Assembly (NCBI GenBank): GCA_034440575.1 | Contig: JAOTOL010001648.1 | Coordinates: 991,501 to 1,055,500, forward strand | Length of the DNA stretch: 64,000 nucleotides | DNA from: Imbricaverruca yamaguchii | Lineage: Eukaryota; Arthropoda; Thecostraca; Neoverrucidae | Direction: 5' to 3' | In this document: one piece after another, positions 1,116-52,704 of the stretch | How positions within the stretch are numbered: position 1 is the stretch's first letter | Layout: each line of letters starts with the position of its first letter | Translations under genes and position numbers: made by a program | Notes under the pieces: generated by a model | What the model saw: the letters and a program-made list of their open reading frames with translations, nothing else | Databases searched by the model: none | Told to the model about the DNA's origin: nothing

Positions 1116-1901
1116 TCGCTAGGCCTATTCTCAGCCGCGCCGGATATACGCAGCGACCTCCGCTGATCACACCTGACCCACTCCGGACCACTTGACCCAT
1201 GCCTGATCACCTGACCCGTTTGTCGGCGGCTGACCCGCTCCCGAGTGCAGCAATGTCCACCCGGCCCGCCGTACTGCCGAGCGCTGCGGTACAGCCTAGC
1301 TGCAATACGGGCCGGGCACCGTTTTTTATTGACCACAATCTCCGCAACCATTCATTCCTGAATCACCGGTGCGTGTCTGTACATTGTTCCGGGCGTGCAC
1401 ACGTCAGGCGTCACGAAGTAACACAGAGCACTGCATTGCAGCGTGGTGTGCACTGATTACTCTTGCTGCTGTCGACTTAGATTGTTGACTTAAACTACCT
1501 GGCCTTGCACTGCATTTGAAAACTTGGTGCAATGTATTAAATTTAACGGCAAGATGGTTTCATCAGGTCAGAGGTCATCTCCTTAGAAGTAACGCGTGCA
1601 GTGTAGTCGGTTCGATGTGGTTCCATGATATTGCTGTGCAACGCGAGGTAAGGCTGTTCACCAAGCGGCTTACTCGTGGCTTAAGGTCAGTGTATAGGTC
1701 AGGTAACCCGCCGTCAGATGTCAGGCCAGGTGTCAGATGTCAGAGCGCATGGCCAACAGCGCATTTCACTCGAGCGATTAAAACGTTGTCGCTTACTGGA
1801 CTGTAGCAGGAGGCCTTGCCCATATGGTTGGAACGCTGCACATTTCCAACCCAAATTATACATTAAGCTATGCATGAGTGACGCAAGAGCAATACCACAG
1901 C
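1116..1901. other. No recognisable gene or element
   Basis: Unique-looking sequence, moderately GC-rich between 1120 and 1330. Nothing identifiable on either strand. Confidence 0.5.
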
Positions 1902-2779
1902 CAGTGTTGGGTCCGCTGGGTACATACACTCAGCCAGTGTTGGGTCCACTCGGTCCAAACACAGAGTCAGTGTTGGGTCCACTCGGTCCACATACTGAGC
2001 CAGTGTTGGGTCCACTCGGTCCATACACTGAGCCAGTGTTGGGTCCACTCGGTCCACATACTGAGCCAGTGTTGGGTCCACTCGGTCCATACACTGAGCC
2101 AGTGTTGGGTCCACTCGGTCCACATACTGAGCCAGTGTTGGGTCCTCGGTCCTCTGGCCAGTGTTGGGTCCACTCGGTCCCAACTGAGCCAGTGTTGGGT
2201 CCCTCGGTCCTGCTGGCCGTGTTGGGTCTGGTCCATACACTGGCCAGTGTTGGGTCCCTCGGTCCATCTGAGCCAGTGTTGGGTCCCTCGGTCCACTGGC
2301 CGTGTTGGGTCCCTCGGTCCACACTGGCCGTGTTGGGTCACTCGGTCCACAACTGAGCCAGTGTTGGGTCCTCGGTCCACATACTGGCCAGTGTTGGGTT
2401 CGGTCCAAACTGAGCCAGTGTTGGGTCCTCGGTCAAACTGAGCGTGTTGGGTCCACTCGGTCCACATACTGAGCCAGTGTTGGGTACCTCGGTCCATACA
2501 CTGGCCAGTGTTGGGTCCTCGGTCCCACTGGCCGTGTTGGGTCCTCGGTCCATACTGAGCCAGTGTTGGGTCCACTCGGTCCCTCTGCGTGTGGGTCGGC
2601 AACTGGCCAGTGTTGGGTCCACTCGGTCCACATACTGAGCCAGTGTTGGGTCCACTCGGTCCATACACTGAGCCAGTGTTGGGTCCACTCGGTCCACATA
2701 CTGAGCCAGTGTTGGGTCCACTCGGTCCATACACTGAGCCAGTGTTGGGTCCACTCGGTCCATACACTGAGCCAGTGTG
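1902..2779. repeat. 33-bp minisatellite with 66-bp higher-order unit
   Basis: Unit CAGTGTTGGGTCCACTCGGT plus CCACATACTGAGC or CCATACACTGAGC, 33 bp, about 26 copies. The two forms alternate, giving a 66-bp dimeric higher-order repeat at both ends (about 1935-2140 and 2620-2779). From about 2141 to 2600 units are shortened by many small deletions and lose the alternation. Because 33 is divisible by three, long frames stay open on both strands; these translations are periodic artefacts, not proteins. Flanks are unrelated unique DNA. Confidence 0.95.
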
Positions 2780-3775
2780 ATCACCGTTACAGGATACACA
2801 ACTCTGAGCTGGATAGCTATCAGGCATACCTGCCAGAATATAAGTTGTGGAAGAAAGGTGTGACTTCATGTCGGGAGAGCCGAGTAGCAGATAAAAACCT
2901 AGACTGATGTACATTGAGGTGTACGCATAAATGTGGTGTGCTTGGTGCTGGCCAAAAGCGCCGTGGTTCCACTTCTGCATCGACGTCCGAAACATTTACA
3001 TGAGAAGAATGCGATGAATCCATGGCAAAGCAATGGAGCCCCTTGTTCACTCGTATGTGGTAGCGAGGGAGCCGGAAGAGAGGGTGCGGGTAGAGGGGTG
3101 AACTCTAGATCAGCTTCTAGAACCTGCATCTCTGCATGCACGGATTCATGCACATCAACTGTGATACGTCAAGTTAATTGCACCCTTCTTCGAATTATGC
3201 TATTTTGTAATTGTGGCTCCTAAGTAGAATGTGAACTTAGTAAATAGCTCGCAAGAAGTACAAAGCAACAAGACCCTGAAGCGTTGTGATAAGCAACCTG
3301 CATCACTTATTTTGTGACAAAGCAAGTGCCGGATAATTTTTCCAAAAGCTGGGGAGGGTGAAGGGCGTTAGAGACGTGACCAACGTGTCCTCATTGCGTT
3401 GTAATTTTGCTGCCACCTGAGTATATAACTGATGGACAGGAAGCTAGTCTGCTCCCGTACTTTTTAGCGTGTGCATGTAGGGACAGGAAGGAGAGGTATG
3501 CTCTCACATTTAGGAACTGAACTTCGTGTTCATGGTGAATCATGGAAAGATTTGACATGAAAAGGTGACCTCGTCATTTTGTGGATGTTCGTGTACCACC
3601 GCAGCAATTTAAAACATGACCCATAAAATAGTATCTGGAAATGAACTTCACACACATATCCTGCATCGCAATCATTCTGTAATGACCCAACGTTGGGCGA
3701 TTGTGGGTTAATGAATAAATATAGAACGTAGTATATTTGTTTGACGATTACTCTGGTTCTCCCCTGAGTCTTCAT
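2780..3775. other. No recognisable gene or element
   Basis: Unique-looking, slightly AT-rich from 3170 to 3780. No protein similarity recognised in any frame, and no RNA gene structure seen. Confidence 0.5.
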
Positions 3776-7470: not shown

Positions 7471-7791
7471 GCTGAATTTATTTATTTATCTTATTTTTTA
7501 TTTCACGATACTTGCCCTCCATGTGCAGTGGCTGTTATGGACAGTCTGGGTACAACTCACAAATATTTACAAAGAAAGGATATATTTGTGGTCAATAGTG
7601 GGAACAGATGTGCAACAAACATTCGTACACCAACATAATACAATACCCATATCACTATCTGCACTACACACACCGTGCTTGCAACACGAACTATAAACGA
7701 GCAGTTTATAGCTAGGAAGTGATAGGAAAGCGATGGCCTAAAGGTGAGTTCATAGTGTACACACATCCCTTGTGTAGTTTTTTTTGTGTGA

Positions 7792-9378
7792 CTAGTGTTG
7801 TTCGTGGAGATAAGCTAGTGCATGTTTCTTGAAGTTAGACAGCCTAGATGTTTTTTTTTCAGTAGGAAGTTTGTTATAGTGGAAGACAAACGAGTAGAGA
7901 AATCTCCTGCGGCCAGCCTCTCTGTGTATGTCTGACAGGTGCAGATGGTCGTCTGCACGTGTGTGACGGTTTCGCAGGATTGAGTTTGCAGTGATTTGAC
8001 CGGCAATGTGCGTTGGCTCACCCGTCATAGTGATCTTGTGGAGCAAAGCAATGCTGTGAAATAGATGTAGACTAGCTGCGGTGAGGAAACCCAACTCGTT
8101 ACGAGCATCAGAAATATGATCAAATTTCCGTAGACCTGACACGACTCTAGTGGCGAAGTTAATGATCTTGTCTAGTCTGTGGATGTTTGCTGCCGACCCG
8201 TTCCCGAAAACAGATATGTAGTAGCGAATATTGGATATAACTAAGTTATTGCCTATAGTGAAGAGGGTACTGGTCGGCAGATGGTGACGCACATGGCTCA
8301 GGGCCAGAAGGAATCCAGTGCACTTGCGGACCACAACAGCCACATGGGAATCCCTCGACATGTAGCGATCAAATGTCACCCCAAGGTTCTTACACGAATC
8401 GCTCTCATCTATCACGGCGTCCCTAAAGCACACTCGTATCGAGGTAATATTACGAAGATTTTGACGCGATGCGAACGTAAGAAGCTGAGCTTTGGTCGGG
8501 TTCACCTTCAAACCGTTGTCCAGAAAGTAGTCGTAGAATTGGTTCAGACATGTCTCCATCTGACTTATAAGATTTGGAAGATCAGATTTGTGACCGGAGA
8601 TGAGGACCTCTGCGAACTGAGTGACGTGTGCTACCGGAACGCCCAAACAGAGGTCGTTCGAAAAGATTCAATAGAGGAGTGAACCTAATGATGAGCCTTT
8701 AAAGACACCAATGTTGTTTGGGAGAAAGGAGGAGAGATGCCTGTTTCCTCGTTGATCTGAGATGCTGACAGCCTACGTGTGACTTCCCAGATATGCTCTA
8801 AACCAGTCGGTATCGATTCCATGGAGTTCGAGTTTAGTGAACAGTTTGGTGTGGTCTATTACGTCGAAACATTTACTGAGGTCCAGAATGCAAAGGAGAG
8901 CTACTTCCGAACGATTCATTGCTGCTAGTGTTTTGTCCGTAACTGAGATAAGAGCGGTTTCCGTAGAGTAGCGTGGTCTGAAGCCCAGCAAACGGTTCAG
9001 GCATGTTTGCCTGGCGTTTGACCTCTGCTGATACTTTTGGTCCGACACTAACAAAATATTGATTTAGCTGCTCATGTAGGACCTGAGGTTGAACTCTGTG
9101 AGAGCCTTTTTGGTATCGATAATGGGCTTGATAGCACGCCACGCAGCCGATGGGCCTTTCTGAGCTATCTTTCCGTTAATATCTTCTCTACAGTCAGCTC
9201 TAATAGCTGATCGAACTTGTCGGTTAAGTACTTTGTATGTGTTTCTATCTTGCAAGTGCAAGGCTGCATTTCGCCGATACTTGAGCTGTTTGGTAGCTTC
9301 GCTAACATGTGGTGCTGTTGGGTTCCGAAATTTGATGTTTCCGAGTGGCAGATGCTCGTCGAGAATAGGTGTCAGCAA
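7792..9378 (-). pseudogene. Reverse transcriptase region of LINE (broken)
   Basis: The linker (9064-9378) runs into a phrase LNQYFVSVG in another frame. The sequence then jumps near 9000 directly to GFRPRYSTETALI and LDLSKCFDVIDH; members of this family normally have roughly a hundred residues between, so fingers motifs are deleted. In-frame TAG (8773-8775) and TGA (8668-8670) flank a GVFKGSSLGSLLY motif. The catalytic Y/F-A-D-D site reads FAEVLISG (8605-8616), without both aspartates, best explained by a 9-nt in-frame deletion. The 284-codon frame 7792-8646 holds the thumb and C-terminal part (TRVVSGLRKFDHISDARNEL) and is otherwise intact. Known role: target-primed reverse transcription. This copy is dead. 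Confidence 0.88.
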
Positions 9379-9399
9379 TCTCAGCGGGATGATCCATTC

Positions 9400-10351
9400 G
9401 TCAGTTACTGAGATGCGACCAGTGACCTGGGCCCAGTCAATCTCACCAAGGTCAAGGGTCAGTTCCGATGTATCCAGTCGTTCGAAAGAACGTGACTTTC
9501 ACGGTGTTAGCTGAGGCAGGCCTGTTTACTTTATCAACATATGATACATTTGTGGGGACTGTAGTGGCAGAAACTCACTCTGGTTCTGCCGACAGACATG
9601 GGCGAATTTGCTATGATGGCATCCAATGAAGAGCCTGTGACGAATGTAGGGAGCTTCACTGTCACGGTAAGTGAATAGTTGCTTATGAACTCAAGCAGGT
9701 GTGTTTTGCTGGGGCTATGAGCTGTGTCAAAAAGGTTGCTATTTAGATCACCCGCGAGGTAGAAAGTGCCGGTAAAGTTCAGTGTCGCCAATTGAACCTG
9801 TCTTTCGAGCTCAGCGAAGTCATCATTTAAGGCAGGAAGAGTGCTACGAGGATGCCGATAGATTGCCGCCAGCATGAAATACTTTCCGCTTTTCCCTTTT
9901 ACTTTGGCCCAGAGTGATTCCAGTTTGAAGCTCGAGTTTGGAGGCGTATAAATTTTCAAAACGGTAATAGTTAGCGCTGATTTAGCGATATAATCGCCAC
10001 CCTACCGTAACCACTAGAGTCGGGTCGATCCGCGCGTTTTACTTGGAAATCAGGGAAGCTAATGAGACGCGTTAGGGTGCTAGGTCGCAGCCAGGTCTCA
10101 ATTACCACAGCTAGGTCTAGAGAGTAAGAACGAAGGTCGTGGTGTAGCTCAAGTAGTTTAGGTTTGATAGATTGGGCATTGATGAACCCCAGGTGAAGCT
10201 GCCCTTTGCGTTTCTGAGCTGTCGCATTGCCTGTTCCGCCCCGCGATCCGCGTCGTCTGCCACCCCTGGCGCCGCCCCTGCCCCGACGTGTTTTCTTCGG
10301 CACTGTTTTGGTAGGATGATGTAGAAATGAGTTAATTTGCTTACCAGTCAT
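9400..10351 (-). pseudogene. APE-type endonuclease region of LINE (broken)
   Basis: Starts at an ATG on the minus strand (10351) with about 45 residues rich in Arg and Gly, which could bind RNA. The apurinic-endonuclease-like fold follows: a FINAQS motif (catalytic Asn), an ETWL motif (catalytic Glu), then AAIYRHP and AGDLNSN in the next frame. A frameshift near 9985 separates these two halves. The final catalytic SDH motif reads SPH near 9555, where another frameshift follows. A further frameshift near 9495 leads into the linker. Family role: nicking target DNA to prime reverse transcription. The substitutions and frameshifts make it inactive. Confidence 0.85.
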
Positions 10352-24511: not shown

Positions 24512-24783
24512 CCGCCTGGTTAGCTCAGCCAACAGAGCCATGGCCTGCAAACGTCTCCCCGTCTTGGCACAGCGGGTTCGAGTCTCTTCACGCGCTGGCT
24601 ATTACCGCCTCCGGTTGCGGTAGCCAGTTGGCAACAGGCCAGACAAGGTCGGCGGTGCAGACACCAGATGGCCGGACCCCATGTGCGGGTACGCTAAGCT
24701 CTCGGTCACAATTGCGCTATAGGACTGGAATTTTCCGATCTGGAGGTGAGTTCAGGGTCAGCGCAGCAACCTTGTACTGAGCA
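24512..24783 (+). mobile_element. tRNA-derived SINE, copy B
   Basis: The head has A box TAGCTCAGCCAA (24521-24532) and B box GGGTTCGAGTC (24574-24584), followed by TCTTCACGCGCT. The body phrase AGTTGGCAAC..GCC.GACAAGG, CTCTCGGT and the 3' block GGACTGGAATTTT match the copies at 21853 and 45592. CAGTTTG flanks both sides (24505-24511 and about 24809), a possible but weak 7-bp target duplication that would extend the element to about 24808. Confidence 0.85.
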
Positions 24784-24872: not shown

Positions 24873-24885
24873 ACGATTCGGAATA
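24873..24885. repeat. Target site duplication, left copy
   Basis: ACGATTCGGAATA, identical to 24959-24971. The last A could belong to the insert, because the homologous copy also has A at this position, so the duplication is 12 or 13 bp. Confidence 0.88.
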
Positions 24886-24958
24886 GTGTGGGCGGCGCCA
24901 TTAGCCGTGAATGTGCATAAAGTGTGTCGTGAACCAACCAATAAACAAACAATAAACA
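24886..24958 (+). mobile_element. 5'-truncated retroposon tail with 13-bp target duplication
   Basis: A 73-bp insert starting GTGTGGGCGGCGCC and ending in an AATAAACAAACAATAAACA-type tail. It is flanked by perfect direct repeats ACGATTCGGAATA at 24873-24885 and 24959-24971. It matches the minus-strand insert at 51960-52060 at 66 of 67 positions. Short 5'-truncated inserts with variable-length duplications and a simple 3' tail are the signature of LINE-type target-primed reverse transcription. The parent element is not in the window. Confidence 0.9.
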
Positions 24959-24971
24959 ACGATTCGGAATA
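24959..24971. repeat. Target site duplication, right copy
   Basis: ACGATTCGGAATA, immediately after the AATAAACA tail. It is the partner of 24873-24885. Confidence 0.88.
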
Positions 24972-28257: not shown

Positions 28258-28305
28258 TAGTTAGCTAGTTATTAGGGCTTTAGGTCGCATCGAATACACT
28301 GATGC
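28258..28305 (+). repeat. Dispersed repeat, copy 1
   Basis: TAGTTATTAGGGCTTTAGGT followed by CGCATCGAATACACTG. The complement of 47965-48012 reads the same with about three substitutions. A shorter look-alike (GGTGCTTTAGGGCGTGCCGACTAC) is at about 30610-30635. This is probably a fragment of an interspersed element of unknown class. Confidence 0.65.
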
Positions 28306-29830: not shown

Positions 29831-31927
29831 GACCTGACCGGTGCCGGGCGTGTTAGGGCGTTACCGCTGCTGCGCGACGCAGGGGCTGTGGCCCGGCAAT
29901 ATCGATTTGCACGCACGTTTTCGGCAGGGCCGCGCATGTGCTAGTACTGTACGCGCGTGATGCGTCGGGTTATATACCTTCTGGCATTCTGCGGAAAGCC
30001 TAAGTATGTAATGTCAGGAAATTGTGCAATTTCCAAGCGGCCACTCCAATAAACCATTGGACTAATGACCAGACACTACGAAGTGCCCGGCTATCATTCA
30101 AATCTCATAGGGTACTTAACATTGCATCACCTTTCCTGCCACATCGTCATGTTATATGCATTAAATGAAGTTATCGATGACATGAGGCATTTCTTTCAGA
30201 ATACCTGTCTCATAAAATCCCTTCTGCGATTAGCAATGGAGGATATATGCCCATTTAATGACGCATGCATTATCTGGTGAGGTGTGCACTGCTCTAAATA
30301 GTTAAGTTTGAAGCATACTCTGTCCAGTCTTCGTATTACTTGACATTTAAGTTGCCAGATGCTTTAATTTGATTAAATTCCTAGTTAGGCATGCAGTTTG
30401 CCCGCGCGTGTTGTGTGCTGCGTAGTTTTGCTCAGCCGCCTTCGCTGCTTCATGCTTATGGTCGGTGCCAGGTAAAGTGGCCGGTTTTCAATTGGCGGGG
30501 TTCGACGCAACCGGCTGCACAGTGTCCATCCAGGGTTTTCGGCTATAGCTGGAAACAAAGCACGTGGTACGCTGTTTGTCACAGATTATAGGTGGTGGTG
30601 ATGGGTTGGTGCTTTAGGGCGTGCCGACTACTTCGGCCATTTTGCGTCCATGATACCACCTGTCATCATCTTATGGTTTATAGAGAAGAATCTTAGCTCA
30701 TATCTGAGTGTAGGCGCTACTTGGCAGTCTACCAGGTTGACAACGGTGCAGTGAGGTTAATTGCGATTATATAAATTGATTGCTAACTGCCATACCGTTG
30801 GTCGGGCCACAACCAAATTTTGCATACAAATAGAATGGTGAGTGTGACACATTTTGACGCCAGAGAAAGTTTCAGCTCAGGCTAGGTCACATAGCTGTGA
30901 CGTCATAGCGAAAGGTCGATGCGACAGTTTGTGTGCTGTTGGTGCTTGCGTTTTGACGTCCGTCGAATGACGTCAGTTTCGACTAAAAAATCGCTACGAT
31001 GGTCAGATACCGCTGCCAAAAGCCGGGAATGTCATCAGGTCACCGGCCAAGTCATCTCAGGTCACTGAGGAACTGTTTGGCCTGACTTGACCCGACGTTG
31101 TTAGCGACGATTGACAGGCATATGAAGCGTTGTAATCAGCATCTAGCGTCTGCTATGAAATTGATGAATGTCCAAGAAGTCAAAAGATGTGACACATGAC
31201 TGACATGCAATACTCTACCACATACTCTACTCTACTACTTAGCTTCAGTCCGAGGTATAGATTCGCATGGTGTCAACGTATGACTGGATCCCGTCTAATG
31301 CACGCTTACGAAAGAGTCTGACGCTAATGCCGCTCCTACGGAAGTCACTCAATGAGAGGTCAAGGGTGACTGATCCGTTGCCATGGTAACGGGTCAAGGC
31401 CACCGTCTGGATGCGAAGCTGCGCTATATATCTCGGCTAAATTCTGCATTCGCAAAGCGAATTGGCAATGCGTAGATTGAAGGCCAGTGGTAATTGCCTA
31501 GTAGGCGGCCGTAATTTAGGTTGAGCTGAAAACACCCATAGTATGTCAGGTGTAGAATATTTTAGGCCGGCGTACAGGTGTACTTAGTTCCAGTATCTGA
31601 CGTCGAAGTGACAAAGGCGGCTGTCAGCCTCAACACGAACACTGTCGGTTGGCAAGCTTCAAAACGCAACTGTAGCAGCACTGGGAGAGTCGTCGTGAAC
31701 AGTGTCAAGCCTACGCTTAGTAGTATGTGAAGTTCCATCGCTGATAAAACACCGTTGTCAATTCGTAAACGAACACGACCATGATACAAAAATAATGCTA
31801 AAAACAATGTCTGCTCCGTATCAACGACGAGAGACGACTTCCAAAACCCGCAATCCTCTGGTGCAACTCTCTTTCAACCGTGGTTTGTGTTCTTTAGGAG
31901 TCCCCATCTGTATCCACTGAAATTTCA
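29831..31927. other. No recognisable gene or element
   Basis: About 2.1 kb of unique-looking, mildly AT-rich DNA. TGACGTCA-type words recur at 30896-30980. A fragment similar to the 28258 dispersed repeat is at about 30610-30635. The short frame at 30065-30280 has no recognisable family. Confidence 0.45.
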
Positions 31928-32000
31928 CTTATTTATTTTATTTATTTATTTCACTATGCATGCCCTCCACGTGCAGTTACTATTTTGGACAGTCTGGGTT
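31928..32000 (-). mobile_element. 5'-truncated 3' tail of the CR1/L2-like LINE family
   Basis: The first 51 non-tail bases (31950-32000, TTTCACTATGCATGCCCTCC onward through GGACAGTCTGGGT) match 43 of 51 positions of the 3' UTR of the LINE at 7501-7551. Both are preceded on the plus strand by the same TTTA/TTTATTT tract (31928-31949), the complement of an AAATAAAT tail. It is therefore a very short insert of the same family or a close relative, minus orientation. No clear target duplication was seen. Confidence 0.8.
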
Positions 32001-45591: not shown

Positions 45592-45867
45592 AAGCCCCGG
45601 TAGCTCGGTTGGTTAGAACGCTGGCCTGCACTGGTCTCCCACGTCCTGGCAAGACAGTTCGAGTCACTTCACGCGCTTGCATTCAGCCCCGGGCTGGGAG
45701 GGTCAGTTGGCAACTAGCCCGACAAGGCCGGGGACAACCTACCTGGGCGGCCGTGTTGGTGCACTGACAACACGTTCAACTCTCGGTAAAAAATTCTGCC
45801 GTTGAACTGAATTCATGGCTTGGATGGTGGGACCAGGGTTCACGCAACAAGCTCCGCTTAGCCATAG
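45592..45867 (+). mobile_element. tRNA-derived SINE, copy C
   Basis: A box TAGCTCGGTTGG (45601-45612) and B box AGTTCGAGTCA (45656-45666) lie 55 bp apart as in a tRNA gene, then CTTCACGCGCTTGCATTC. Body and 3' block (AATTCTGCCGTTGAACTGAA onward) align collinearly with the copies at 21853 and 24512. It is not a functional tRNA: the acceptor stem does not close 3' of the B box and the sequence continues as SINE body. No clear target duplication. Confidence 0.88.
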
Positions 45868-47900: not shown

Positions 47901-47964
47901 CCAATGAAGAGGTCCAGAGTGCAGAGAGGTCTGCCTCCTGCATGTGGGAGAACCCTTATTGGGC

Positions 47965-48012: not shown

Positions 48013-49553
48013 TGGGAGAACCCTTACGAAGTAGGAAAAATAGGCTAGGTTCACCCAAGCGCTCTCGCTTTTATGCACATCGATCATGAAGAACTGCCGC
48101 GTCTTGCTGCGGCACTAAAACGTGTCTTTATCTTCTGCTTCTTGAGGAAAAAAACATATCGTTACTAGGCGCCTTCCCGAATGTGCATGGCTGTCGCCAC
48201 GGTGGCGATGGCTGTCCCAATGGCTACGGCCGCTACAGCGACGAAGGCCACCTCATCGTCGATGGTGATTTCAGCCGCCACAGCCGTCTCGGCTGTGACG
48301 ACCGCCCAAGCGGCCGCAGCCGTCCCAGAGGCCTGACTACAGCTGCCACGACAGCTACGATTGCTACAGCGATGGCGAAAAAGACAGCTCAGCGATAGCT
48401 GTGATAAATGCGGTGGCGGTTGCTTAACTTCGGACCGATGTGATGCGGGTTAAGAAGAAAACACTAATTCGCAGAGTGTTGTGTGTTGGACATTGATGAT
48501 CAGGCCTGTTGCTATTTCTTCCCCTGTCGCCAAATCTTGTACCTATATTTCCCCACTGATAGTCACGCTCTGATTGTGGAAGTATGAAGGAATTGAAAAG
48601 GAGCAGCAAAGTGGAGGTCACCCTATCATGAACACTCTCACTATTAATCTTCTCTGAACGTAGGCGACAACAAAAAGAAACAATCTGCAATGGTGTCCAT
48701 GTAGATGAGTAATCGTAGTTTCACGCAAGCTAATGGTATCCATGGCTTCAATCGATATGTGTTAAATGCCCCTTTATTTTCCGTAGCATTTTCCGTATTT
48801 CCCCAGCTGTCGTCGGCAGCTAAGCGGACTGTTACTAAGCAGGTTACAGCCATCACTGCTGAAAATCTAATAGTTCCAAAATTTAGTTGAAATAGCTCAC
48901 ACTATTTCATGGAAAAATACCACTTCGAGTGGGGTCATATTTAATGTAGTTTTGATCGTTATTACATTATGCCGTAAATTCACGGAATTCTAGGAGATTA
49001 TGCAGAACACTTGGTAACTTTTCATCTTAGAGATCCTGAGGATGCTTATAATGATATATGTAGGCGGAATATTTGCTCCCCAATCATCATAATTGAATAG
49101 TACTTGAACCATGTGTGCAATGTTTTGCAATCGTTTTTAGGATACCTGGTTCCACCAGAGCCGTTCATGAGACTACCTTGGCCTACTGTCGACTCTTACT
49201 AGTACGGTGGTTGTACTTCATTGAACGTCGGAGTCCCCGACGCTTATGATGATGATTGCTGCTTAACTGGCTCCAGGTCGGGCCTCGGTCCATCCGACGC
49301 CCGGCTGGTGGCAGGGTTCCGCCCCTCCTCGAAAGGCAGCCTATAATGTGCTTCCAGATGTGGAAAGGTGCGTTTGGTTCAGTCGAAGTGCTGAGAGACC
49401 TACGCCTGATGTTACACGTTATTCGATTAAATACCGAGCATGCAGGTAAGGGCTAGACAGGCAAGCAAAGCATGCAGGGTAGACAAGGGATCGTTTTTTT
49501 CCCTGCCGCAGCTGGATTGTGCAAATAATTTTACTTCAAAACAGTGGGCGCAT
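48013..49553. other. No gene called; Ala-rich low-complexity stretch 48187-48398
   Basis: At 48187 a plus-strand ATG opens about 50 codons composed almost entirely of Ala, Thr, Val and Met (MAVATVAMAVPMATAATATK and on). After a TGA the same composition resumes in another frame to 48398. This is either a decayed GCN-type trinucleotide-like repeat or a broken low-complexity exon. The remaining 1.1 kb is unique-looking. Confidence 0.4.
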
Positions 49554-50850: not shown

Positions 50851-51277
50851 GAAGCCGTCGGCGTGACAGGCTTCTGTTCTGCTCGTCCGACGCTGAACCG
50901 GGGTAGTTTAGTCGACGGTACGGCTATTTTGTTTAAAGCGAGATGGCTGCGTGCCGACATGCAAACTACCGCGATGTCGGCACTGAACGGGACGGAATTA
51001 AGTGCTGGATTGCCACTAATGTCTCACAGATGTTGCTTAATAGCCCGGGCCGTGTGAGCATTTTTGCGAATTTCCTTTGGAGCCAGTCGAATTATTGTTG
51101 ACTGTGTTCTTGCGATCACGGGAAGTTGTTTTATCTAGCCTGACCAAAATTTTACGTAGTCCCCAGCCGAATTTGCCCCATCCGATCGGCCAACACGCCC
51201 GGCGGCCGCTCGGCAATGGGCGTCCCGACAATGCGCCGCCAGCCAGCTGCCAGCCAGCTGCCTCGACCCACTTCTAG
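50851..51277. other. No recognisable gene or element
   Basis: Unique-looking DNA with a CCAGCTGCCAGCCAGCTGCC duplication at 51241-51263. Nothing else. Confidence 0.5.
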
Positions 51278-51377
51278 AGATAGCAATCTGAAGAAATTTT
51301 CGGGCTGAAGCCCAGCCCGAACCGGATCTCTGAAGTCCCAGACTCGGTACGAGCCCGATGTAAGTCCCAGACCCGGT
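51278..51377 (+). repeat. Dispersed repeat, inverted pair, arm 1
   Basis: AGATAGCAATCTGAAGAAAT through CGAACCGGATCT to CCCAGACCCGG. The complement of 51848-51946 aligns over about 100 bp at roughly 75-80 percent, including AGATAGCAATCTG, CGAACCGGA, GTCCCAGA and CGGTACGAG. It is probably the end of an unidentified interspersed element present twice in opposite orientation 470 bp apart. Confidence 0.75.
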
Positions 51378-51847
51378 CTAAGCTCAGCTATTGCGTGGAA
51401 TGCTATGGAGGAGCAGACGGCCAGGCCTGACACTGTCGGGTCCACTGGACGGTGCAGTGAGACTCCGGAACTAGACGGCAAAGTGAGACTGGCCTGGTCA
51501 TGTCAGTTTGGTCATGTCATGGTGCTTAATCATAGTCACATCAGCACGTAGTGATTGTAGCAAACCACCATTACTACTCACTTTCAGGCATTCAACAAAA
51601 AATATAATCCCGCTTGTTCAGCTGTGGTTTTCTTCGGCATGAATACAAAATTCCTGAATTAGTTTTCATATAATGATGGAGTTGGAGTGCTAAGACACTA
51701 TGGCATGTACAAATGAGGTAGTGGATAGAGGTGGCAAAGCTCAGGTCCGAGGGCCCGACCCCCGGGCCCGACGTAGACCCGAACGGACCCCTGTTGGCCA
51801 TGGACGTCCACTCCTCCACCACTCGTCCATGCACAGTTGGGATTGGG
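51378..51847. other. Spacer between inverted dispersed repeats
   Basis: Unique-looking, with a GC-rich part at 51740-51800 (GGGCCCGACCCCCGGGCCCG). It could be internal sequence of a larger inverted element or simply spacer. Confidence 0.4.
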
Positions 51848-51946
51848 GCAGGCCCGGGCATTACGTCGGCCTCGTACCGGATCTGGGACGTCACAGGTCC
51901 GGTTCGAGTCGGGCTTGGGCTCGATCATTTCTGCAGATTGCTATCT
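51848..51946 (-). repeat. Dispersed repeat, inverted pair, arm 2
   Basis: Partner of 51278-51377 on the opposite strand. A retroposon tail (51960-52060) has inserted only a few bases beyond its AGATAGC end. Confidence 0.75.
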
Positions 51947-51950
51947 TTAA

Positions 51951-51959
51951 CAGTGTGTC
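51951..51959. repeat. Target site duplication, left copy
   Basis: CAGTGTGTC, identical to 52061-52069, abutting the retroposon's simple tail. Confidence 0.8.
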
Positions 51960-52060
51960 TGTTTGTTTATTGGTTGGTTCACGACACACTTTATGCACAT
52001 TCGCGGCTAATGGCGCCGCCCACACTGTTTCGCCGGTGGGCCTCGGGATTGGGAATCTAG
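51960..52060 (-). mobile_element. 5'-truncated retroposon tail with 9-bp target duplication
   Basis: The minus strand reads from 52060 to 51960 and ends in CCAATAAACAAACA. Its last 67 bp match the 24886 insert (66 of 67, counting the boundary A). It extends about 30 bp further 5' than that copy. Direct repeats CAGTGTGTC flank it at 51951-51959 and 52061-52069. Different truncation points and different target sites show two independent insertions of one family. Confidence 0.87.
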
Positions 52061-52069
52061 CAGTGTGTC
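52061..52069. repeat. Target site duplication, right copy
   Basis: CAGTGTGTC, at the truncated 5' end of the retroposon. It is the partner of 51951-51959. Confidence 0.8.
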
Positions 52070-52704
52070 AAGGCAGCTGACAGCTGCCTGGCAACGCATC
52101 GTCGCGACGCCCGTTGCCGGCCGGCGGCTGGTCGGCGGGGACAAATTTTGTGCCCATGTGAAATTTTGGTCAGATTAGATTGTAAAAAGTAGCTTCGCGT
52201 GATCGCAAGAACATAATCAACACGAATTAAATTTGATCCAAAGCGAACTCGCAAAAAAGCATGTGTATGCGGCCCTGATTCCTGTTTAGAACACCAGTTA
52301 GCCAGATAACTCCATTCACTCTTGAAAGACTTGCAGTCTATTTAGTGGGTGGATAGGATGCATGCGAAGAGCATGACAGGTATTGGAAGTTAAATTAGGA
52401 TTGCAAGATGCCCCTGAAAATTTGGCGTTATGGTGTTCTGTCGTGAATCTTTGGCGAGTAAATAGTACAGTGCGCTTGCGAATACCATATTTTGAACTGT
52501 GACTGTGACTCTTCAAATCACAGCGCGTGGCGTCTGACACAGAACCTGTGATTAATGAGTGGATGAAATTGCAAGTTGCCGAAGTCGCAATGCAATTATA
52601 TCATGTGTAGGTCAGAGCCGTCGATGGATTGCCCACCAGGGCACGGTTCGATTCAGTGCTGACGCGTGCAGAATTATACCTGGTGCGGACAGAGTACGGT
52701 ATGG
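52070..52704. other. No gene; possible SINE head fragment 52605-52665
   Basis: Unique-looking. At 52605-52665 GTAGGTCAGAGCCGTCGATG and CGGTTCGATTCAGTGC are spaced like A and B boxes, and the latter resembles the SINE phrase GTTCGATTCACTGC. No body homology follows because the 21-bp array begins, so this is only suggestive. Confidence 0.35.

What the first reader, a model, noticed from the sequence alone, without database searches (positions are those of the whole stretch)
24873..24971. Young retroposon tail delimited by a 13-bp target duplication
A 73-bp insert ending in an AATAAACA-type tail is bracketed by perfect ACGATTCGGAATA repeats. It is 66/67 identical (counting the boundary A) to a second, independently truncated insert at 51960-52060. 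Such high identity suggests a recently or currently active non-LTR family whose full-length copy is outside this window, whereas the LINEs inside the window are badly decayed and have a different tail. The A at the 5' junction is ambiguous, so the duplication is 12 or 13 bp.
Basis: partly seen in the sequence, partly recalled or inferred. Interest (0 to 1): 0.8.

Follow-up and report, generated by a model that had tools for sequence, protein, structure and literature searches.

The report
Two truncated copies of a SINE
The short insert is the clipped end of a roughly 187-base tRNA-headed 'jumping' element (a SINE) that has spread to thousands of places in this large genome; it is real and fairly recent, but an ordinary kind of mobile DNA.

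Summary
In detail: a 73-bp insert (24886-24958) lies between perfect 13-bp repeats (12 if the boundary A is the element's), and 66/67 bases match a second, reverse-strand insert. The second is better read as 51960-52055 (96 bp) with a 14-bp, 12/14-matching duplication: the window also holds a ~75% inverted copy of that region without the insert. The 767-Mb genome holds 2,419 exact copies of a 47-base piece, reversed control 0. Sampled sites have unrelated flanks except two pairs, and 65 of 69 have their own target duplication (1-2 of 69 with swapped flanks). So it is a retroposon. But it is not the tail of a LINE. Of the 40 scored matches, 29 begin at one common 5' point about 167 bases above the tail, with a tRNA-like stretch and A and B boxes. 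It is a tRNA-headed SINE, and both window inserts are 5'-truncated copies. The partner LINE was not found: that genome search did not complete. New family of a known kind as far as I could check; fairly recent spread likely, present activity not shown.

The parts
24873..24885 (.). Left copy of the target-site duplication ACGATTCGGAATA (12 or 13 bp; last A ambiguous)
24886..24958 (+). Insert 1: 5'-truncated SINE copy, element positions 114-186, 73/73 identical to full-length copy L012, tail AATAAACAAACAATAAACA
24959..24971 (.). Right copy of the target-site duplication of insert 1
51946..51959 (.). Target-site duplication of insert 2 on the 3' side of the element (TTTAACAGTGTGTC on + strand)
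   Evidence: 12/14 match to 52056-52069, 9 bp perfect
51960..52055 (-). Insert 2: 5'-truncated SINE copy, element positions 84-179, 94/96 identical, tail AATAAACAAACA
52056..52069 (.). Target-site duplication of insert 2 on the 5' side of the element (TCTAGCAGTGTGTC on + strand)
51265..51278 (-). Paralogous empty (pre-insertion) site of insert 2, in the inverted sister arm 51058-51432

Best explanation
Both inserts are 5'-truncated copies of one tRNA-headed SINE family about 187 bp long. Inferred mechanism: RNA polymerase III transcribes full-length copies from the internal A and B boxes; a LINE-encoded protein recognises the 3' end of the RNA (CGTGAACCAACC + AATAAAC-type tail), nicks the target and copies the RNA in place (target-primed reverse transcription), leaving target duplications of mostly 12-14 bp; where copying stops early, a 5'-truncated copy such as the two here results. 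Shown: common 3' end and tail, common 5' start of full-length copies, A/B boxes, target duplications, an empty site, dispersed high copy number. Inferred: Pol III transcription, the LINE partner, the copying steps.
For: 2,419 exact 47-mer copies, reversed control 0. Of the 40 scored matches, 29 begin at position 1-3 of the reference and 11 further in (two of the 11 are the window insert and its second locus copy; L046 is unclear). Of the first 30 loci listed for the 47-mer, 23 begin at 1-3 and 7 further in. TSD of at least 10 bp with at most 1 mismatch at 65 of 69 distinct sites, commonest 14 (23) and 13 (17) bp, against 1, 1, 1, 1 and 2 of 69 with flanks swapped. A box TGGCCGAGTGG at 11, B box GTTCGACTC at 57 (consensus patterns recalled). 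The head's 19-mer GATGGCCGAGTGGTTAAGG is positions 6-24 of a tRNA called by ARAGORN in a viral contig. Paralogous empty site of insert 2. Only two pairs of sampled loci share 3' flanks: the window locus with C573, and L050 with L062.
Against: The head is not recognised as a tRNA by Rfam (one copy, E up to 1, 15 loci, E up to 10, three chance microRNA hits only) nor by ARAGORN (19 loci, five tRNA genes, none on a SINE copy), so it is a diverged tRNA relative and its isotype is open. L041, L047, L049 and L074 show no TSD at the setting. No transcript was seen. No partner LINE turned up in the 212 kb and 304 kb scanned, and the genome-wide search for it did not complete.
Confidence: 0.93

Rival explanations
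1. The inserts are 5'-truncated tails of an autonomous LINE whose full-length copy carries a reverse transcriptase.
For: Truncation at different points, shared 3' tail, target duplications. A LINE that shares the last bases may still exist.
Against: 29 of 40 and 23 of 30 copies stop at one common 5' start, with the target duplication directly before it. In one search the 3'-anchored matches between copies end at most 179 bases up, and no other match over 200 bp joins two different stretches.
Confidence: 0.03
2. The pair is a segmental duplication, or the family is a satellite or DNA-transposon derivative, not a retroposon.
For: Insert 1 has a second locus copy with the same flanks (C573), and L050/L062 are a second such pair.
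Against: No other pair of sampled loci shares 3' flanks; the duplications differ from site to site and vanish when flanks are swapped; no terminal inverted repeats by eye.
Confidence: 0.01
3. Variant of the best explanation, not exclusive of it: the SINE is mobilised without any LINE that shares its 3' sequence, through its A-rich tail alone.
For: The tail is A-rich and variable; no LINE with the same end in the sequence held; the base after the nick is A at 33 of 65 sites, though overlap with the tail's own A may cause part of this.
Against: The tail is not poly-A and the bases before it are constant in the copies seen, which suggests specific recognition; the partner search was unanswered.
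Confidence: 0.2

Closest known systems
HaSE1, tRNA-derived SINE of Helicoverpa armigera (PMC3272025; passages read)
   Same: tRNA-related head with A and B boxes; a short-repeat 3' end instead of poly-A; TSDs of 5-18 bp; both full-length copies and 5'-truncated copies (75-356 bp, TSDs 5-17 bp)
   Different: HaSE1 ends in TGA repeats and its 3' tail is similar to that of an RTE LINE; here the tail is AATAAAC-type, the element is ~187 bp and no LINE partner is known. Sequence homology was not tested.
Older tRNA-like repeat pair in the same window (24541-24652 and 45622-45731)
   Same: tRNA-like motifs by eye, two dispersed copies
   Different: 77% identical to each other, so older; no match to the AATAAAC family in the scan
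LINE remnant at 7504-10351 (minus strand)
   Same: Non-LTR machinery, the kind that mobilises SINEs (recalled)
   Different: Decayed; its end reads GTATCGTGAAATAAAAAATAAGATAAATAAATAAA and gave no match to the SINE tail

Membership tests
tRNA-derived SINE | Short element with a defined 5' and 3' end | tested here: met
   ~187 bp; common 5' start in 29 of 40 and 23 of 30 copies
tRNA-derived SINE | Pol III A and B boxes in a tRNA-related head | tested here: met
   A box at 11, B box at 57; 19-mer of the head lies in a tRNA called by ARAGORN
tRNA-derived SINE | Recognisable tRNA fold or isotype | tested here: inconclusive
   No tRNA called on the copies scanned
tRNA-derived SINE | Target-site duplications that differ from site to site | tested here: met
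   65 of 69 sites; 1-2 of 69 with swapped flanks in five trials
tRNA-derived SINE | Dispersed, high copy number | tested here: met
   2,419 exact copies of a 47-mer
tRNA-derived SINE | 3' end shared with, or recognised by, a partner LINE | tested here: inconclusive
   None in the sequence held; genome-wide pattern search unanswered (first try, last)
tRNA-derived SINE | Transcription by RNA polymerase III | not testable with these tools
   no RNA data
LINE (autonomous non-LTR element) | Longer copies with a reverse transcriptase sharing this 3' end | tested here: not met
   Nothing shared above the common 5' start in 19 stretches of 7 kb; only those stretches were examined

The most novel reading that the evidence does not exclude
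A fairly recently spread tRNA-headed SINE with a non-poly-A, AATAAAC-type tail that is carried by a LINE type not yet known to carry SINEs, or by tail recognition alone. (Frequent 5' truncation is no longer part of this claim: HaSE1 shows it too.)
Probability: 0.15. Interest if true: 0.45.

Novelty: new member of a known kind. Interest (0 to 1): 0.27.

Why it matters
It turns a guessed LINE into a defined, abundant SINE family that can serve as an insertion marker in this genome, and it gives a clean example, with a paralogous empty site some 700 bases away, of a truncated SINE insertion. It changes no general picture of how SINEs work.

Tried and rejected
Exact scans of block pieces in viral contigs and genome contigs gave 0 hits; a scan of viral contigs with the window's LINE protein confirmed none; a distant blastn of insert 2 against plasmids gave no match. 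Those collections are viral, bacterial and archaeal, so this says little. LINE partner: blastn with element parts over 212 kb gave, outside SINE copies, one 22-bp hit (L033, E 0.022); a motif scan over 304 kb gave one TGAACTACCC hit without the tail. That motif scan skipped places with SINE-like words in front, so a LINE sharing those words could have been missed. Rfam on the window gave nothing at gathering scores. Paper searches (listings only, apart from passages of the two papers named) showed no description of this family; words cannot search for a sequence, so this is weak, and no SINE library was held.

Sampling limits. The 40 matches are the scored part of 931 candidates, so identity figures are biased upward. 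The 30 loci are the first listed by contig number (short contigs) of 2,419. Left out of the 69-site TSD count: L009 and L062 (second copies of two loci) and six further copies met by chance in the fetched stretches. L001-L008 repeat later loci or the window and L048 is a viral contig; none entered the counts. Start positions quoted use a reference that lacks the first G and so run one lower than those; the local alignment of insert 1 starts at 106 there because it runs into the target duplication.

Against my reading of youth: the 29 full-length copies differ from each other by 3.6% on average, close to the 4.3% between the two locus copies of insert 1.

Full report
What is in the window. A 73-bp insert at 24886-24958 stands between perfect copies of ACGATTCGGAATA, which occurs nowhere else in the window. 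Its 67-bp block recurs once, on the minus strand, at 66/67. In 30 mononucleotide-shuffled windows the mean number of 12-mer pairs at 60-120 bp spacing was 0.13; the real window has 28 clusters of such pairs, most of them tandem arrays and a few isolated, so the repeat alone is good but not final evidence.

The second insert and its empty site. Self-comparison showed that 51058-51432 is an inverted, roughly 75%-identical copy of 51792-52260. The left arm lacks the insert. With the insert and one copy of the duplication left out, the arms align without a gap over 30 bases through the join, GATTGCTATCTTTAACAGTGTGTCAAGGCA against GATTGCTATCTCTAGAAGTGGGTCGAGGCA; a 4-base gap follows further on. The sister arm's TCTAG shows that the duplication is 14 bp (12/14 matching) and the insert 96 bp, 51960-52055. 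The family element agrees: these 96 bases align to it at 94/96 and the five beyond match none of its bases.

The family. G000 has 767,457,503 bases in 1,430 contigs and the window is C1415:991501-1055500. The 99-bp query gave 931 candidates; 40 were scored and all 40 matched. A 47-base piece occurs exactly 2,419 times (1,221 + 1,198), the reversed control 0 times. Six further, partly older copies lay by chance in 133 kb of stretches around 19 of the matches; if those stretches were typical, the family with its old copies would number some tens of thousands (a rough extrapolation from six).

It is a SINE. Lined up on their 3' ends, most of the sampled copies share a start 167 bases above the tail, GGGGCGGGGATGGCCGAGTGGTTAAGG..., with the target duplication directly in front. 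Of the 40 scored matches, 29 start at positions 1-3 of the reference and 11 further in (14 to 112; among them the window insert, its second locus copy C573, and L046, which is unclear). Of the first 30 loci of the 47-mer, 23 start at 1-3 and 7 further in; L050 and L062 are one site. An A box and a B box sit at 11 and 57. A 19-base piece of the head equals positions 6-24 of a tRNA gene that ARAGORN finds in a viral contig, the one exact match in that collection. The copies scanned are not called as tRNAs by ARAGORN or Rfam, which is common in SINEs (recalled).

Retroposition. At 69 distinct sites, both window inserts included, 65 have a direct repeat of at least 10 bp with at most one mismatch, commonest 14 bp (23) and 13 bp (17), range 10-19; the four without are L041, L047, L049 and L074. 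With flanks swapped between sites 1, 1, 1, 1 and 2 of 69 do. Tails vary in number and order of AATAAACA, AACA and ACAATAAA blocks. Only two pairs of the sampled loci share 3' flanks: the window locus with C573, and L050 with L062.

Age. The 29 full-length copies differ from their majority by 2.0% and from each other by 3.6% on average; three (L012, L014, L035) equal the majority; 50 of 80 variable columns are singletons, a star-like pattern. The first columns include some flanking bases and the sample is the best-scoring part of the family, so these figures are approximate. Insert 1 equals copy L012 at 73/73, insert 2 at 94/96; the duplication of insert 2 has 2 mismatches in 14. The second copy of the insert-1 locus, C573, differs from the window by 75 mismatches in 1,757 aligned bases, and by 61 in 1,034 in the next piece, and carries the same insert and duplication. 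So the spread is fairly recent, of the order of the divergence between these locus copies; this particular insertion is older than their split; current activity is not shown. L050 and L062 differ by 6 mismatches and 8 gap positions in about 3 kb and also share their insert. A search for the insert could not have found locus copies that lack it.

What I could not settle. The partner LINE: nothing in the 212 kb and 304 kb scanned, and the genome-wide search did not complete in any try. Whether the family is already in a repeat library is unknown; the paper searches named in Tried and rejected showed nothing. The closest described case I saw is HaSE1 of Helicoverpa armigera, a tRNA-derived SINE with full-length and 5'-truncated copies, TSDs of 5-18 bp and a 3' end like that of an RTE LINE (PMC3272025, passages read).

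Noticed in passing
51058-51432 and 51792-52260: A ~1.2-kb inverted duplication, arms about 75% identical (320 of 422 aligned columns, ends included); origin unknown.
   Followed up: partly
47945-47958, 48013-48026: Perfect 14-bp direct repeat TGGGAGAACCCTTA around a 54-bp insert ending CCCTAATAACTAAC; related stretches at 28263-28301 and 30611-30650 (minus strand). Looks like the tail of another retroposon family.
   Followed up: partly
24541-24652 and 45622-45731: Two 77%-identical repeats with tRNA-like motifs by eye: perhaps an older SINE family, one copy just upstream of insert 1.
   Followed up: partly
7504-10351 (minus strand): LINE remnant: a weak endonuclease match below Pfam's cut-off and a 284-aa piece with 102 relatives, many bearing the reverse-transcriptase domain PF00078, the best (P0001) 86% identical on a 1,497-bp ENA contig. 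Its 3' end recurs at 31952-31999 at 83%.
   Followed up: partly
window, many places: Very dense tandem repeats, many of them minisatellites: 94 TRF rows; 13,128 bases masked in a TRF run with a lower score limit.
   Followed up: no
L025 (G000:C1350) 1491-3443: Four tRNA-Asp(GTC) genes in a row at about 600-bp spacing.
   Followed up: no
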